Shown here one piece after another: positions 574 through 17,321 of a stretch of 17,321 nt of DNA; position 1 is the stretch's first letter; every line of letters begins with the position of its first letter. Source of the DNA: Bremia lactucae (lineage: Eukaryota; Oomycota; Peronosporomycetes; Peronosporales; Peronosporaceae); assembly GCF_004359215.1 (NCBI RefSeq), contig NC_090613.1:5769656-5786976 (forward strand). The letters run 5' to 3'. Both the position numbers and the translations under genes were made by a program. The notes below the pieces were generated by a model. That model had not been told where the DNA came from. It saw nothing but the letters and a program-made list of their open reading frames with translations, and searched no databases.

Positions 574-1827
574 ATGTGTGCATTTCCATCGATCAAGCTA
601 ACCTACTTTAACATAGCGGGGGCAGCTGAAGCCAGTCGTCTGGCTTTTTACATTGGCAACGTGCCATTTGAAGACAAGCGACTTAGTAAAGCAGAATTCG
701 CGTCTGTCAAAGAAACGCTTCCTCTAGGTCAAGTGCCGGTCCTTGAAGTAGACGAGGAGGTGTTTACCCAGTCGCATGCTATCTTACGTTACGCCGGGCG
801 TCTAGGAGGACTGTATCCCGTGAGTGCGCCATACTTTGCCTTGAAAATCGATGAGCTCTTGCACGCCATGGGTGAAATCGAAGCGATGATGGTGGTATCG
901 TATCATGAAACAAACGTGGAGAAGAAAAAGGCGTTACGTGAGGAGTTAGCAACGGATATAATTCCTCGCTATGCCAAGATTTTTGAAGCCCGCCTTTCCA
1001 AGATGCAGCAAATCGCAGCTTTTCAGACGGAAAAGGTATTTATTCACGATGTAGCCATTTACAGTTGGATAAAGCCGATACGCGCTGGAAATATTGACGA
1101 CATTCCGTGCACGGTGTTTGATGGGTACAAGTTACTTAATGAAGCTTTTAATAAGGTCGCCAACCACCCTAAAGTAACCGAGTGGTACACGATACAGCAT
1201 TGTACCCCCAAGCTGAAGCTAACGTACATGCCCAAACCTGGTCGTGCAGAGCCTATTCGTCTTGCTTTCTTTATTGGAGGCGTCGAATTCGAAGACGAAC
1301 GCATTACTCGGGAGGAGATGCTGGCTCGCAAACCGTCGCTACCTTTTAACCAATTGCCCGTGCTTGAAGTGGACGGTGAAGTGATTGCTCAGTCGCTAGC
1401 AATTCTTCGCTATGCAGGGACACTAACTGGGTTGTATCCAGTAACTCACTCGATAATGGCATATCGTGTTGACGAATTGCTTGCAATTCTCGATGAACTG
1501 TGCAACTGTCCGCTCTGGGGAGCTTGTTTCCGTGAAAAGGACGCGAAAAAGCAATTGTCTATGCGTGCAACCTTAGTCAGCGGCGCTTTGGCAAAGGCGC
1601 TGAGCGGATTTGACAAAATAATTAAACGAAACAAGGGTCCGTATGCGGCAGGGCCGAAGCTTACTGTGGCCGATTTGGCCATTTACGGCTTGCTTCTTAC
1701 TTTTAAGAACGGTATGGCCGGTGTCGAGACAAATGTGGCGGATAATTTCGAGAATCTGCAGCGTGTGTTTAAGCTGGTAGCTGAACATCCAAAAGTAGTT
1801 GAATGGAACGCTTCGCACGGTCTGTAG
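574..1827 (+). CDS. Tandem-fused glutathione S-transferase (two GST units)
   Basis: A 417-residue protein made of two complete GST-like units, each a thioredoxin-fold N domain plus a helical C domain; a usual GST has about 200-220 residues. Unit 1 starts with KLTYFNIAGAAE (residues 8-19) and unit 2 with KLTYMPKPGRAE (215-226), giving a constant offset of 207. The Tyr at 11 and 218 sits where sigma/alpha-type GSTs carry the catalytic Tyr. Each unit has the cis-Pro (P55, P262) and the QS-x-AILRYAG glutathione-binding segment (S67, S274). The helical-domain N-cap Asp is at 159 (HDVAIY) and 367 (ADLAIYG). Unit 1 has Ala17 where unit 2 keeps Arg224 of the common GRAE motif. The expected role is cytosolic glutathione conjugation or peroxide detoxification. 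The ATG at 574 gives a standard GST N-terminus, and no intron is needed. Confidence 0.93.
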   Translation: MCAFPSIKLTYFNIAGAAEASRLAFYIGNVPFEDKRLSKAEFASVKETLPLGQVPVLEVDEEVFTQSHAILRYAGRLGGLYPVSAPYFALKIDELLHAMGEIEAMMVVSYHETNVEKKKALREELATDIIPRYAKIFEARLSKMQQIAAFQTEKVFIHDVAIYSWIKPIRAGNIDDIPCTVFDGYKLLNEAFNKVANHPKVTEWYTIQHCTPKLKLTYMPKPGRAEPIRLAFFIGGVEFEDERITREEMLARKPSLPFNQLPVLEVDGEVIAQSLAILRYAGTLTGLYPVTHSIMAYRVDELLAILDELCNCPLWGACFREKDAKKQLSMRATLVSGALAKALSGFDKIIKRNKGPYAAGPKLTVADLAIYGLLLTFKNGMAGVETNVADNFENLQRVFKLVAEHPKVVEWNASHGL

Positions 1828-5585: not shown

Positions 5586-8441
5586 TTAGCCTGCTCTTCC
5601 GACAGCCTTGGGCATCTTTTTCGATCGCGCGTCTTCAACATCCTTTGTCTTGTAATAATGAGGTGCCAATTCTGTAAGCCACTCCGACTTGATAGGAATA
5701 ACATTGCGCATATACTCCTTGGTCGTAAATGCCAATTCATGATACACCACCCACCGCGGAACTTCCTCGAGTTTAATAAGACACGAGCTCGGATGAATGT
5801 GCACGGATTGTGCCTTCTTCACAGTCTTGTAATGGCCCGAACTGTCCAACTTGGCAGTGTTGTAAAAGTAGCCCGCACAAATAGCCTTACGAAGTGGCTC
5901 GTGGTCACTGCGATTACTTGTACGCTCTAGCTCCACACGGTCGCAAAGGCCTTCGAGTTGTTCTCGAACATCCCGAGCAGTTTTTAACGACCGCATAATA
6001 ACAAAATTCTCGTACGTCCATTGCGTCGAGTAATTCGTCTCGACCCACTGATTATAGACATTCATTAAAGTAATGTGGTCTCCTCCGCCACCACGTGCGA
6101 AATTCAAACGAGCGTTATCAGCATGAACTGCCTTATCCTTTGGTCGATAGAAAATGGAATTATTAACACTTAACATGGCGCAAATTGTCATAACTTCTTC
6201 CACGCATCCAAATTTCTCCGACGCCAGTAGTGCTTTAGACATCATTGGATCCAGTGGAAACTCGGCCATACGACGACCAAGCTTGGTTAATTCTCCTAAG
6301 CCATTTAACGCACCAAGAGCGTATAGCTGTTCTAGTGACCGAATCAACGCCTTTTCGGGTGGAGGATCCATAAAGTCGAAATGGAGCAGGTCATTGATCC
6401 CTAGCGATTTCATTAGCAGTACTACACTCGCAAGATTAGTTCGCTGGATCTCGGGCACCGTATTCTCATCCAATTCGTTCTGGTATGACCACGCCGTGTA
6501 CAAACGAAAGCACATTCCTGGAGCCGTGCGTCCTGCTCGACCAGCACGCTGGTTGGCCATAGCTTGCGACACTGGCGCTACTAAAAGCGACTCCATGCCT
6601 GTCTGTGCATTGTAATTTGTCTGCTTGCAAAAGCCCGTGTCAATGACAAAGCAAATACCAGCAATTGTCAACGACGTCTCGGCAATATTCGTACTCAATA
6701 CGACCTTGCGAGCTCCTTCGGGTGTTGGCTCAAACACTTGCGCTTGCCGCTCGGACGGCAACGTCGCATAGATTGGTCGAATGAGCAACTCGCGGATTCG
6801 AGAGCCAAGGCCACGAGTTCGCTGGAGTAATATCTCTTCTGCCGTCTCAATCTCTTCTTGGCCAGTAAAAAACACGAGGATGTCGCCAAGTGGCTGAGTG
6901 ATGTGAATTTGCAATACCGTGACGATCGCAGCATCCAAATAATCGGCTTCCGGAGCTTTCGTGTACAAAATATCAACGGGGAACATACGTCCCGGGATTT
7001 TAAATATTGGCGCATCGTCAAAATACGCACTAAATTTGGCCGCGTCGAGCGTAGCACTGGCCACAATAATTTTAATATCATCTCGAAACCGCGCAATATC
7101 TTTGATTAATCCAAAGAGAATGTCAGTACTAAGTGTGCGTTCATGGGCTTCGTCAATGATCATGACGCTGTAGGATTTAAGATCCGGTTCCGTCAGAAAT
7201 TCACGCAAAAGCATTCCATCCGTCATGTATTTGATCACGGTCTTTTCGCTTGTGCAATCCTCAAAACGAATCGAGTAACCCACTTCGTTTCCTAGCTTGA
7301 CATTCATTTCCTGCGCCACTCGAGCTGCCACACTCATGGCCGCCACACGTCGTGGTTGTGTACACCCAATCATGCCGATTTCCGAGTATCCGACTTCATG
7401 AAGATATTGTGGAATTTGCGTTGTTTTGCCCGATCCAGTCTCGCCTTCAATAATAAGAATAGGATAATTGCGAATGGCCTCTAGCAACGACTCGCGATAG
7501 GGATAGACAGGCAATTGTTTCCTTCCTTCCTGCAAACTCATATGCTTGGCTCGTTCCATTTTTGTTCTCGCTTCTTGGACTTCTTTTTCACTAACATGAC
7601 GCCCTGCAAGCATTTGTTGAGATATGAATTCAATTTGATCATCAAATAGAAATTCGTCTTCTTCATGCAATTCTGTATCGTTTTGTATGACACTACGTCG
7701 ACTCGTCGCCATTTTAACTTGAGTATTTTCCCATATTTCTTGCTCGGTATGAAGCACCTCGTCTTCTTCATAGCGGTCCGTTAATAAATTCTCCTTCTTA
7801 CGGATACGATTGCCTTCATCATCGACTTCTTCATACGAATCAGGAATCTGATACCCTTCGACTTCTTCTTTCTGAGATCGTGCCTTGGCTGTCTTTAATA
7901 TTTGACGACTAAGTTCCACTTGTTGATGTTCCTTTTTCGATCGTTTAGCTGTTTCAAATAGCACGTCTTCATCTTGTAATTGAAACTCCAGCAGCTCTAA
8001 TTCTTTCTCTTCTCTTTTCTTCAAATATTCTTGTCGGCTAAAATTACGAAGTTCGCTTAACTTTTCATTCTGTTGAGCGTCAAGGGTCCCGCGCTTGGTA
8101 AGCTGCTCAATCTCGTCGCGTGTGAGCCCTTGCTGGCCTTCAGCCTCTACGTTCTTTCGCTTGCGTTTCGTACGTTCCTCATCGCGTTGGCGTAAGCGCT
8201 CGGCAAAGGCGTCACGCTCTTCACGGTCACGTAGTCGGTCGCGCTCATTCGGTGAGACATTGGCTTCATCTTCCGCTGCTTGCTCGTGTTTTGAGCGAAA
8301 AGTAGGAATAATGTCGACGTCAAGGTCCTGGTTAGTATCTTGAGAGCCAGGTGGAGGGTTATCGTCACTGTCTGAAGACCGACGACGGCGAGAGAAGCCA
8401 TCGGAGCGACGCGATTTGCGCGCAGGGGTGCCTCCAGCCAT
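5586..8441 (-). CDS. DHX16: DEAH-box pre-mRNA splicing RNA helicase, Prp2/DHX16 type
   Basis: A 951-residue uninterrupted frame. The core matches spliceosomal DEAH helicases closest to DHX16/Prp2, which use ATP to remodel the activated spliceosome before the first transesterification. Motifs seen: I GETGSGKT (333-340), Ia [10 protein letters not shown], Ib [18 protein letters not shown] (430-433), III SAT (462-464), [36 protein letters not shown] (631-638). Then come the winged-helix, ratchet (HA2) and OB-fold parts, with [14 protein letters not shown] and [15 protein letters not shown], as in DHX16. The first ~300 residues are a charged, Arg/Ser- and Glu/Lys-rich region predicted to be disordered or coiled coil. 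The folded N-terminal helical module of human DHX16 is not visible, and the upstream sequence does not supply it in frame. It shares its promoter region with the divergent gene at 8714. Confidence 0.96.
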
Positions 8442-15049: not shown

Positions 15050-15640
15050 ATGTGATAATACTGCTGCTCGCTGACACGCTCTGTCAGAGCTTCATACAGC
15101 GTGACGTCATCTTATTAAAAGCAGGTTTCGCATTAACCAGGCATTCTATTTCTAGACTTAGCCTCTCGGGCGCAATTCACGTTACCATCATCATGCAGCG
15201 TTGCTTTATGCGCTCTGCGTACGTGATCTCATCGGCTCGGCCACTATGTAATCCTTCGGACTTGTCGAATTCTCAAAATAGCTCCAAATACGCACCTCAG
15301 TATCTCCAATATTGAAGTCCATCTTGAGCTGGTCGTGAAAGAGTACATTCGTGCTTGCGAGGTATATCAACGCGGTATGTATCAGGAATGTGACGATGTC
15401 GAAGCGACAAGCATTGCCACGTGATAGCCACCAGGGTCTTCATCTGTCAGTAGTCTACCTGCTTCTTCAAGACGAATCAAGCTAGGCGATCGAGGGTGCG
15501 TGGTTCGATCGAGTTACGGATGGAGGTGATACTGCGGTCGTACTATTTCCCCGTGACGGCACATCGGCTGCGAATCTTGGCTTCATACGGACGGCGTTGT
15601 TGCACCACAACGCCAGCGACGCCTGGTTCCAGGCGTTGAA
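15050..15640 (-). pseudogene. Gag capsid region, degraded
   Basis: Minus-strand fragments such as GDTEVRIWSYFEN, ERIKQRCMMMV and RVSEQQYYHMLAR occur in order but in shifting frames. They resemble the capsid part of oomycete Ty3/gypsy Gag proteins as I remember the family; no alignment was run. The N-terminal part (about 15640-15350) shows open pieces without a recognised motif. Hairpins remain at 15487-15511, 15593-15614 and 15619-15636. Confidence 0.55.
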
Positions 15641-15879
15641 CTTACAATGTGATTTATACTCATGTCGATATCACCATCATTACTTACTGTCATTATGTTC
15701 GTCGGGTTGGCTCCACGCCTTGCAGACCGATTTGTCTCACAGCTGTCGTCTCATTTTTTTCTTCTTTGCCGCGGATTCTAGTTTGTTTAGAAAGAATACT
15801 TTGTGGTTCAGTTAACATAAGGATGTAAATTGAATTGTGACTGCCTAAGCAAAAGATTAAACTGTGCATGAAAGCACCC
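15640..15879. other. Junction between the minus gag remnant and the plus pol fragment
   Basis: Opposed element pieces meet here and the breakpoint cannot be fixed by eye. The stretch contains a pyrimidine run (about 15750-15770) and short open frames on both strands that do not match either gag copy. It may hold lost gag N-terminal or leader sequence. Confidence 0.4.
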
Positions 15880-16502
15880 ATTGAGTTCACCGGCTTGCAG
15901 GTACCGACCCCGCGCTGCTCCCACAAAATGTGCAGACGAAAGACAAGCTGATGCACATTGATCTAGCTGCAATTAATGAGGAGTTAAAAGCTCTCCAAGA
16001 GAGTTAATGCTATATACATTGAGAGTATCCGACTGCAAAGAGAGAACATGGCTTTAGCAAGAGATGGCGAAGAAGGGCACGATTGAACTTTTCATCGCTA
16101 AAAATTGTGTATTATGGGCTCGATTCGATAAGCGACTTTGTGATAGCAAGTTGACAGTACGGGTTGGGCCGTACAGAGTCCCGATGCACGCGAGTACTTG
16201 TTCATGATCGAGCATCTCATAACAGGCGAATTGTTTGAAGTTGACGGCTCAAGACTCAACTTCTTTCACAACGCCAGCATGAACGTCACCGGTGAAATAC
16301 TGAAGGGCATATGAGGGCAAGGCATTGTTTTGGGGGTTAAGCAGATCCAAAACTACCGATACGATACGCTAACCACACAGTGAGATCTTCTTTTCCTGAC
16401 GTGGGCTGCAGACATCGAAGACTCGTGGGAACCGCTTACAAGTATTGTACGCGACGTACCCGCACTTGTTGAGAGTATGTTAAAGAACAAAAAGACGATA
16501 AC
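15880..16502 (+). pseudogene. Integrase tail and chromodomain fragment (plus copy)
   Basis: A plus-strand copy of the pol 3' end only: MAKKGTIELF, VLWARFDKRL, the GPYRV segment of the integrase GPF/Y module, and the chromodomain core ADIEDSWEPLTSI followed by RDVPALVESMLKNKK. Stops and frameshifts are present, for example near the TTGGGCCGTAC stretch. Upstream of about 15880 the match to the minus copy stops, so this is a fragment. It ends flush at the LTR start (16503). It is either the true 3' end of an element whose LTR this is, or old sequence into which the younger element inserted. Confidence 0.8.
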
Positions 16503-16951
16503 TGTAACGGGGTGTATCGTTACATGAAATTAACAATAAAAGATTGTTAATTAATATTATCCAAAAGGTAGATAATATTTGGAGGAAATTACTTTAAATA
16601 GTAATTTCCTGAATTCTTATCCATAAATAGGTATAGACCATTATGTCTATTTATTCCGCAGACTAATCAGCTGTAGAAGTAATCAAAGAGAGTTACGAGA
16701 TAAGATAGATAAGAATTCATTTACATGTTTAGTATTAGTTTATAGTTAAGACAACATTTACAAAGATAGATTAACAAAGACACTTAACTATATTAATACA
16801 GTTTTCATTTTACCCTTAAGTTAACTTGTCTTAAGGGAAGTCTTCCTCTGCACGTACAGTGTACGTTACTTAACGAGAGGCACCACTCACATCTGAAGCA
16901 GTGTGAAGTGGACTTGTACTGAAACAGTACAAGTCGCAGTGCCCCGTTACA
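16503..16951 (+). repeat. Well-preserved Ty3/gypsy LTR (449 bp)
   Basis: It starts TGTAACGGGG (16503-16512) and ends CCCCGTTACA (16942-16951), a perfect 10-bp terminal inverted repeat with canonical TG...CA ends. It aligns with the older LTR at 11541-11934 in the same orientation. A primer-binding-like site and an open gag frame follow, so it acts as a 5' LTR for an element continuing past the window. Upstream it abuts a pol tail in the same orientation, so it could also be that element's 3' LTR. Nearly the whole LTR is tiled by hairpins (separate entry). Confidence 0.92.
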
Positions 16952-16953
16952 CC

Positions 16954-16971
16954 TGGTAGCACTTTGTAGTC
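16954..16971 (+). other. Putative tRNA primer-binding site
   Basis: TGGTAGCACTTTG begins two bases after the LTR end. TGG complements the CCA tail of a tRNA, and TGGTAGC resembles primer-binding sites that use initiator tRNA-Met in other LTR elements. The tRNA cannot be confirmed without the organism's tRNA set. Confidence 0.55.
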
Positions 16972-17001
16972 CGTCCAAGGACCACATTTCCCACATTTAA
17001 C

Positions 17002-17321
17002 ATGGACATGTTAGATGGTAGTGGGAATACGCATCACGTTTCCCCTGAAAGCTACTCCTTTCTAAGTGATATAGAAAGGAGTGCGGTTGAACGAATGAGT
17101 TCATCCGTAGGAAACGATGCAATCCTGGCATTACTGTCCAACTTAGACAGAGATGCCCTCCATTCAACCGTCGCCAAGTTCATACAACATGAACTTGACG
17201 AGATGAAGGAAAAAGTAGCCTTGCTGAATCAGCAAGGCTCTCAACAGGCGGAACTGTTGAGATTACAACAGGTACAGACCCCTGTACCTGGGATGACGCA
17301 AACGCGTCGTCCCGAAACTCT
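17002..17321 (+). CDS. Gag N-terminus of the younger Ty3/gypsy element (partial, runs off the window)
   Basis: Open from ATG at 17002 to the window edge, 106 codons with no stop. It starts MDMLDGSGNTHHVSPESYSF; a second ATG is at 17008. Residues 63-95 (HELDEMKEKVALLNQQ, then Gln/Leu-rich sequence) look like a coiled coil, suiting the multimerising N-terminal part of Gag. The position, 50 bp after an LTR and just past a primer-binding-like site, is the main evidence for Gag; the sequence has no zinc knuckle yet. It does not visibly match the N-terminal part of the older minus-strand gag. The coding sequence is itself built of consecutive inverted repeats, with the start codon inside a TAACATG/CATGTTA hairpin. 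Confidence 0.72.
   Translation, partial: MDMLDGSGNTHHVSPESYSFLSDIERSAVERMSSSVGNDAILALLSNLDRDALHSTVAKFIQHELDEMKEKVALLNQQGSQQAELLRLQQVQTPVPGMTQTRRPET

What the first reader, a model, noticed from the sequence alone, without database searches (positions are those of the whole stretch)
16503..17313. LTR, leader and gag start are tiled end to end by about twenty hairpins
Nine perfect hairpins with 9-11 bp arms and loops of 3-9 bases lie within 811 bp, plus about eleven shorter or bulged ones, arranged one after another with little overlap. By hand, with equal base frequencies, the expected number of such 9-bp or longer arms is about 811 x 7 / 4^9, near 0.02. The pattern crosses from non-coding LTR into an open gag frame without change, so it is not a codon or promoter effect. 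It could be a packaging, translation or reverse-transcription architecture, a source of hairpin-derived small RNAs, or the product of repeated template-switch events that turn imperfect palindromes into perfect ones. I know of no LTR element described this way.
Basis: partly seen in the sequence, partly recalled or inferred. Interest (0 to 1): 0.88.

Follow-up and report, generated by a model that had tools for sequence, protein, structure and literature searches.

The report
Hairpin-tiled oomycete retrotransposon
A very abundant LTR retrotransposon in what is likely the lettuce downy mildew genome carries dense short hairpin-forming repeats through the control and protein-coding parts that could be read, denser than in any comparison sequence tested; selection likely maintains them, and they would keep the element's RNAs folded on themselves and may shield them from silencing.

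Summary
In 16503-17313 lie nine perfect hairpins (arms 9-11, loops 3-9) against 0.034 expected in dinucleotide shuffles, at most 2 in 500; mid-LTR and leader are weaker. The element is an abundant Ty3/gypsy retrotransposon of a downy mildew, probably Bremia lactucae. Wherever it could be read (gag, RT, an antisense ORF before the 3' LTR) the excess continues: synonymous-codon shuffles give z about -15 (gag), -11 to -12 (antisense ORF), -6 to -9 (RT) and about 0 for four host ORFs. Copia, LINE-like and two other gypsy families show little. Shared (lineage) variants at third codon positions are 2.3- to 3.8-fold rarer in stems, while private mutations are about equal: selection on the active lineage, not template switching, keeps the stems. 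A related family is also over-structured but with other stems. This is the signature of genome-scale ordered RNA structure, stronger than MS2 and than the viral maximum (23.4%) in passages I saw, with few G.U pairs and about equal on both strands. Function is inferred: most likely self-folding of sense and antisense transcripts, limiting duplexes and silencing.

The parts
16503..16951 (+). 5' LTR (TGTAACGGGG...CCCCGTTACA), 449 bp
   Evidence: termini read in the sequence; the same 449-bp unit recurs at 100% at L033 6059-6507, element orientation
16503..16524 (+). hairpin, arm 7, loop 8, at the LTR start
16528..16552 (+). hairpin, arm 10, loop 5
16553..16579 (+). hairpin, arm 9, loop 9
16583..16610 (+). 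hairpin, arm 11, loop 6; one pair is A-T here, T-A in 14 of 24 aligned rows and T.G in 6 (both sides changed)
16623..16654 (+). imperfect hairpin, 13-nt arms, 85% complementary
16741..16792 (+). 10-bp helix with 32-nt loop; one G-C pair is A-T in 4 of 24 rows
16813..16837 (+). hairpin, arm 8, loop 9
16911..16935 (+). hairpin, arm 11, loop 3
16952..17001 (+). leader between LTR and gag ATG
   Evidence: read from sequence
16994..17017 (+). hairpin across the gag start codon, arm 10 with one T.G, loop 4
17002..17321 (+). start of gag, open to the end of the window (an N run follows in this copy)
   Evidence: the 374-codon gag of copy L034 (531-1652) has Retrotrans_gag and Ty3_capsid
17054..17082 (+). 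hairpin, arm 11, loop 7
17082..17109 (+). imperfect hairpin, arm 11, two mismatches
17171..17201 (+). hairpin, arm 13 with one C.A, loop 5
17217..17239 (+). hairpin, arm 10, loop 3
17239..17262 (+). hairpin, arm 9, loop 6
17269..17290 (+). hairpin, arm 9, loop 4
17290..17313 (+). hairpin, arm 10 with one T.G, loop 4

Best explanation
The window ends in the LTR, leader and gag start of an abundant Ty3/gypsy retrotransposon whose readable DNA is largely laid out as consecutive short inverted repeats; selection on the active lineage likely maintains them, and they are predicted to keep the element's RNA and its antisense RNA or cDNA folded on themselves, which would limit sense-antisense duplexes and hence RNA silencing. 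Shown by computation: the density; its spread over LTR, gag, RT and antisense ORF; its near absence from four host ORFs and from the copia and LINE-like loci tested; the shortage of lineage variants in stems at synonymous sites; the change of stem positions between families; the low share of G.U pairs; and the similar folding of both strands. Inferred: that the RNAs fold this way in the cell, that antisense transcripts exist, and the link to silencing. The kind of structure is that of genome-scale ordered RNA structure in RNA viruses, here in a retrotransposon.
For: Nine perfect hairpins against 0.034 expected. Synonymous shuffles: gag z -14.3 to -16.0, antisense ORF -11.1 and -12.2, RT -6.4 to -9.0, four host ORFs between -1.1 and +0.4. 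Folding-energy excess in 300-nt windows: 49.3% (window), 57.6% (gag), 46.5% (3' end), 39.8% (RT); MS2 28.8%, host about 0. Stems conserved in the lineage: with L034 as reference, 23 shared variants at 197 paired third positions against 71 at 177 unpaired, singletons 0.64 and 0.57 per site (22 copies); same direction with each of the ten reference copies tried, 2.3- to 3.5-fold (p 1e-6 to 6e-4 for shared, 0.07 to 1 for singletons); antisense ORF 8 of 136 against 33 of 147 (11 copies). Structure weakens with private mutations (rho 0.47, p 0.02, 23 copies). Two families both have excess structure but share only 7 to 11 predicted RT pairs of 122-163. G.U is 1.5-4.5% of predicted pairs on either strand in five segments of the window's family outside RT, against 8.1 and 6.7% in MS2 and 7% in a host ORF. 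The antisense frame before the 3' LTR is coding by its pattern of change (unpaired shared variants 12 of 148, 13 of 144, 33 of 147 at codon positions 1, 2, 3), which implies antisense transcription.
Against: No RNA data: folding, antisense transcription and small RNAs were not measured. One-sided transitions in gag stems do not favour G.T over A.C (shared 12 against 17; all cells 192 against 257), which a sense-RNA constraint alone should produce; in the antisense ORF's own mRNA G.T leads 11 to 4 with L037 as reference, 5 to 4 up to 8 to 1 with the others, not significant. Compensated changes in gag are few (13 events in 288 pairs). In 7 of 32 variable gag stem pairs the commoner state among copies is not Watson-Crick, so some pairs are peculiar to L034's lineage. 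In the LTR the shortage of shared variants in stems is only a trend (8 of 162 against 29 of 287, p 0.07). In the RT domain alone perfect 8-bp hairpins (2) do not exceed the shuffle maximum (2), although the energy does. The related family A has folding excess but hardly any perfect hairpins (0-0.74 per kb). MS2 also folds almost equally on both strands (27 and 24%), so strand symmetry alone is not special. The RT's antisense fold reaches 6.5% G.U in L089.
Confidence: 0.45

Rival explanations
1. Mutational origin: the element's reverse transcriptase repeatedly snaps back or switches template at short inverted repeats, so that imperfect palindromes become perfect; the hairpins have no function.
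For: Stems are mostly Watson-Crick and similar on both strands; stem positions differ between families; the host ORFs, which are not reverse transcribed, lack them; template switching is a documented maker of hairpins (PMC8794818, passages); some stem pairs are peculiar to L034's lineage; 9 of 42 shared antisense-ORF sites are in linked clusters.
Against: Such homogenisation should leave the substitution rate in stems unchanged and make changes double-sided and clustered; instead lineage variants are 2.3- to 3.8-fold rarer in stems at third positions while private mutations are about equal, shared stem changes are mostly one-sided, and only 13 of 133 shared gag sites lie in linked clusters. 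The copia and LINE-like loci tested, also reverse transcribed, lack the pattern.
Confidence: 0.15
2. Sense-RNA compaction or packaging: many equivalent short hairpins condense the genomic RNA or bind the Gag nucleocapsid along its length.
For: Runs through the LTR, gag, RT and 3' parts read; Gag has a zinc-knuckle match just below Pfam's cut-off; RNA compaction is known for MS2-like phages (recalled).
Against: A sense-only constraint should tolerate G.U; G.U is scarce and G.T is not favoured over A.C; the antisense strand folds about equally.
Confidence: 0.2
3. Minus-strand cDNA structure: the stems act in single-stranded cDNA during reverse transcription.
For: Shared variants, read on the element's sense strand, give A.C 31 against G.T 18 (p 0.09), meaning wobble on the minus strand; in the LTR and three RT loci the antisense fold exceeds its shuffles by a little more than the sense fold does.
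Against: Not significant; the gag segments exceed their shuffles slightly more on the sense strand; strong template hairpins would be expected to slow reverse transcription (recalled).
Confidence: 0.1
4. A set of specific cis elements (dimerisation, frameshift, translation) that happen to be hairpins.
For: A hairpin spans the gag start codon (16994-17017).
Against: The excess is high through gag, RT and an antisense ORF, the leader itself is among the weaker parts, and pairs are not shared by a family with up to 67% identical RT.
Confidence: 0.05

Closest known systems
Genome-scale ordered RNA structure (GORS) of positive-strand RNA viruses (PMC7642675, PMC3950689; passages)
   Same: many consecutive local stem-loops through coding sequence, pair positions not conserved between relatives, paired sites less variable, large folding-energy excess over shuffles
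   Different: found in an LTR retrotransposon including its LTR; excess 46-58% (32-36% by the stricter formula) in 300-nt windows against a quoted viral maximum of 23.4% (that paper used 350-base fragments); few G.U pairs
MS2-type single-stranded RNA phage genomes
   Same: structured along coding RNA, on both strands
   Different: MS2 has 0.56 perfect 8-bp hairpins per kb and 29% excess; this element has 6-14 per kb and 48-72% in LTR, gag and 3' end, and 3.3-6.1 per kb and 33-44% around RT
Ty3/gypsy (Metaviridae) LTR retrotransposons, and Retand-type elements with antisense ORFs between pol and 3' LTR (PMC11963269, passages)
   Same: LTR, gag with Ty3 capsid, a protease-like motif (by eye), RT, antisense ORF before the 3' LTR
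   Different: the word 'hairpin' does not occur in that paper; the antisense product here has no Pfam match, theirs mostly carry TRP28
Template-switch hairpins (PMC8794818, passages)
   Same: perfect Watson-Crick stems
   Different: here stems are held by selection and change mostly by isolated substitutions

Membership tests
GORS | folding-energy excess over composition-matched shuffles, above the 3% threshold, along the sequence | tested here: met
   49.3% LTR-gag start, 57.6% gag, 46.5% 3' end, 39.8% RT; host about 0
GORS | consecutive local stem-loops through coding sequence | tested here: met
   in the parts read; much of pol is unread (N runs)
GORS | pairings not conserved between related genomes | tested here: met
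   7-11 shared of 122-163 RT pairs between families A and B, against 77-99% of the smaller set within families
GORS | paired sites less diverse than unpaired | tested here: met
   LTR alone p 0.07
GORS | the folded molecule is the RNA genome of an RNA virus | tested here: not met
   it is an LTR retrotransposon; folding in the cell not measured
Ty3/gypsy LTR retrotransposon | LTR with TG...CA ends repeated at the other end | tested here: met
   449-bp LTR repeated at 100% at L033 6059-6507
Ty3/gypsy LTR retrotransposon | Gag with retrotransposon capsid domain and zinc knuckle | tested here: met
   PF03732 1e-14, PF19259 2e-9; zinc knuckle 19.6 bits, just under its 20.8 cut-off
Ty3/gypsy LTR retrotransposon | RVT_1-type reverse transcriptase downstream of gag | tested here: met
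   RT family B lies 1.3-3.5 kb downstream on the same strand in four loci, by eye from the capped lists
Ty3/gypsy LTR retrotransposon | primer-binding site matching a tRNA | not tested
   sequence after the LTR begins CCTGGTAGCACTTT; no tRNA compared
Template-switch hairpins | multi-base linked changes that perfect a stem | tested here: not met
   linked clusters hold 13 of 133 shared gag sites and 9 of 42 in the antisense ORF; whether those few perfect a stem was not examined
Template-switch hairpins | double-sided change in stems at the neutral rate | tested here: not met

The most novel reading that the evidence does not exclude
A whole retrotransposon lineage has been selected so that both of its strands fold into chains of Watson-Crick hairpins: a two-strand ordered structure that lets convergent sense and antisense transcripts coexist without annealing into Dicer substrates, a structural escape from RNA silencing that may help explain how gypsy elements came to fill this genome.
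Probability: 0.3. Interest if true: 0.92.

Novelty: new variant of a known kind. Interest (0 to 1): 0.78.

Why it matters
Genome-scale ordered structure is known from RNA viruses and its purpose is debated. Finding it stronger in an LTR retrotransposon with very many copies in one genome gives a natural experiment: private mutations show neutral decay and shared ones show selection, so the constraint can be measured stem by stem. If it shields both transcripts from silencing, it is a new way for mobile elements to escape host control. It also warns that palindrome or hairpin scans in such genomes may be dominated by these elements.

Tried and rejected
Codon-usage or composition artefact: rejected by synonymous and dinucleotide shuffles. 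Promoter effect: rejected, since the excess runs through gag, RT and the antisense ORF. Genome-wide trait: rejected on the host ORFs and the three copia and three LINE-like loci tested ('LINE-like' is my label from the length of the RT match); random genomic stretches could not be fetched, so the host control is the window's own host part. Template switching: see rivals. Specific conserved elements. Sense-only RNA selection: not favoured by the G.T against A.C test, but not excluded. Linking gag to RT in one continuous copy failed; coordinates were used instead. A scan of viral contigs for gag relatives found nothing. [quoted passage not shown] In one search the row L035:2316-2767 was given in wrong coordinates and is used for no count. 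L018 was left out of the counts but kept. In one search, L032 and L033 gave only 289 bases and were dropped, leaving 11 sequences, and 'shared' means two or more copies there, three or more elsewhere.

Full report
WHAT IS THERE. The window is G000:C4:5769656-5786976 of a 115.93-Mb, 220-contig genome. Its last 819 bases are the 5' LTR (16503-16951), a 50-base leader and the first 106 codons of gag (from 17002). Size, gap content and the closest named gag relatives (Peronospora matthiolae, up to 82% over part of the protein and 69% over its whole length) fit the lettuce downy mildew Bremia lactucae, whose published assembly has 115 Mb of which 24 Mb are gaps and whose contig sequence is 58.6% gypsy (PMC6570648, passages); the species name is an inference. 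The element is very common: the gag protein drew 14,492 first-look candidates, of which 110 were scored, and the LTR-gag DNA 4,188, of which 40 were scored.

THE HAIRPINS ARE REAL. Nine perfect hairpins with arms of 9-11 and loops of 3-9 lie in 16503-17313. Dinucleotide-preserving shuffles give 0.034 on average, 2 at most in 500. Folding of 120-nt windows is at z -6.1 at the LTR start and -4.5 to -7.7 in gag; the windows from 15600 to 16499, before the element, lie between -1.1 and +1.9. Weak parts are 16620-16799 (z -0.5, -0.9) and 16920-17039 (-1.4).

THEY RUN ON. The density continues in the complete gag of copy L034 (531-1652) and just downstream of it, around the RT of the same family (L089, L090, L093: 4.7, 3.3 and 6.1 perfect 8-bp hairpins per kb) and in the 970 bp before the 3' LTR of copy L037 (12.4 per kb). 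That last region holds an open antisense frame of at least 283 residues. Shuffling synonymous codons while keeping the protein and codon counts gives z -14.3 to -16.0 in gag, -11.1 (its sense) and -12.2 in the antisense ORF, -6.4 to -9.0 in RT; four host ORFs in the window lie between -1.1 and +0.4. In the RT domain alone the count of perfect 8-bp hairpins (2) does not exceed the shuffle maximum (2), only the energy does. In 300-nt windows the folding energy exceeds shuffles by 49% (window), 58% (gag), 47% (3' end) and 40% (RT), against 29% for MS2 and about 0 for host; by the other common formula 32-36%, 28%, 22% and about 0. For viruses, passages of PMC7642675 give 15% for SARS-CoV-2 and 23.4% as the highest recorded, with 350-base fragments, and PMC3950689 lists 16% as its top transcript and 3% as threshold.

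WHICH ELEMENTS. Twenty RT loci of the same genome were folded. The window's family (B; L089, L090, L093) has an excess of 33-44%, gypsy family A (seven loci) 19-35%, families C (L086, L091) 8-14% and D (L085, L087) 2-7%; three LINE-like loci -2 to 4%, three copia loci 0.7-5.5%. Family A's excess is of energy: its perfect 8-bp hairpins are only 0-0.74 per kb. With synonymous shuffles family A gives z -4.6/-5.8, C -3.3/-2.0 and D +0.5/-2.2 for sense/antisense, one locus each. RT family B is tied to this gag because in four places RT B lies 1.3-3.5 kb downstream of gag on the same strand (C1:2166995/2164081, C21:42603/45029, C12:2766572/2769188, C1:12131437/12127433; found by eye in capped lists, with none seen for family A). 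By protein, A and B are 58-67% identical, B and C or D 64-75%, so structure does not simply follow the tree.

SELECTION OR MUTATION. I aligned 23 gag copies (L034 and 22 others, 86-96% identical to it) and took as stems only pairs predicted on both strands. Variants found in a single copy, which mostly arose after insertion, are about equally common in and out of stems (0.66 and 0.59 per site; third positions 0.64 and 0.57; second positions 0.74 and 0.53). Variants shared by three or more copies, which mark the active lineage, are scarce in stems: 23 at 197 paired third positions against 71 at 177 unpaired. The result holds with each of ten copies as the reference (2.3- to 3.5-fold; shared p 1e-6 to 6e-4; singletons p 0.07 to 1). 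The antisense ORF, with 11 copies, shows the same at its own third positions (8 of 136 against 33 of 147, p 7e-5); the LTR only a trend (8 of 162 against 29 of 287, p 0.07), and the leader and gag start too few variants to tell (1 of 187 against 5 of 183). Copies with more private mutations fold less well (rho 0.47, p 0.02). So the stems are kept by selection while the element is active and decay afterwards. A template-switch process would instead give double-sided, clustered changes at an unreduced rate; 13 of 133 shared gag sites and 9 of 42 in the antisense ORF fall in linked clusters. Changes on both sides exist in the LTR (the pair at alignment positions 85/104 is A-T in the window, T-A in 14 of 24 rows, T.G in 6; 243/286 is G-C, and A-T in 4), but in gag they are few (13 events in 288 pairs). 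In 7 of 32 variable gag stem pairs the commoner state among copies is not Watson-Crick, so some of L034's pairs are recent or its own.

NOT PARTICULAR HAIRPINS. Families A and B keep the same RT protein region and both have excess structure, yet 7 to 11 of 122-163 predicted pairs coincide (shifted controls average under 1, at most 5), while copies within a family share 77-99% of the smaller set. What is kept is the property, as described for coronaviruses.

BOTH STRANDS. Predicted pairs contain 1.5-4.5% G.U on either strand in LTR, gag and 3' segments (1.4-6.5% including the RT loci), against 8.1 and 6.7% in MS2 and 7% in a host ORF; the folding excess is similar on both strands, slightly higher on the sense strand in gag and on the antisense strand in LTR and RT (MS2 is also nearly symmetric, 27 and 24%). 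Among shared one-sided transitions in stems, read on the element's sense strand, G.T against A.C is 12 to 17 in gag, 4 to 11 in the antisense ORF and 2 to 3 in the LTR; together 18 to 31, p 0.09. A constraint on the sense RNA alone would favour G.T. The simplest reading is that pairing matters on both strands, or on DNA.

HOW IT MAY WORK (inferred). The antisense frame changes mostly at third positions (unpaired shared variants 12 of 148, 13 of 144, 33 of 147, ten copies chosen for lacking stops, plus L037) and has relatives in other downy mildews, so the element should make an antisense transcript that overlaps its own genomic RNA. Two such RNAs would normally pair into long duplexes and feed silencing. 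If each folds at once into 8-12-bp hairpins, too short for Dicer (recalled), pairing between them would be slowed and sites for siRNAs hidden. This fits the strictness of pairing, the spread over the parts read, the indifference to position and the likeness to ordered structure of viruses, which has been linked to escape from RNA sensing (PMC3950689, passages). It is not shown; RNA compaction for packaging is the main alternative.

NOVELTY. Ten searches of the open library (listings and abstract starts, with passages read in PMC6570648, PMC7642675, PMC3950689, PMC8794818 and PMC11963269) showed no description of such structure in an LTR retrotransposon; subscription papers are not covered.

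Noticed in passing
L037:8710-9558 (minus strand), and 137 scored genomic matches: An antisense ORF of at least 283 codons before the 3' LTR, without Pfam match, with relatives in other downy mildews; two of 80 database relatives are labelled RxLR effector or candidate, which may be a naming error for a retrotransposon gene.
   Followed up: partly
window 17321, and query base 819 in the copies: 24 of 30 loci meet N directly after the same base, and the first 370 internal bases are identical over full length in 26 of 30 while LTRs differ by up to 3.3%: likely collapsed repeats in the assembly rather than true identity.
   Followed up: partly
L006, after the element's first 819 bases (element orientation): Directly after a single N the sequence changes to another repeat that also holds near-perfect inverted repeats (GGATGACG...CGTCATCC); it recurs twice more within L035 at 93-95%.
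   Followed up: no
L082-L095: Gypsy families in this genome grade from strongly structured to unstructured, not in step with their RT relationships; a ready set for asking when the trait was gained or lost.
   Followed up: partly
window 574-1827, 5586-8441: Host genes beside the element: a tandem double glutathione S-transferase and a DEAH-type helicase with HA2 and OB domains.
   Followed up: no
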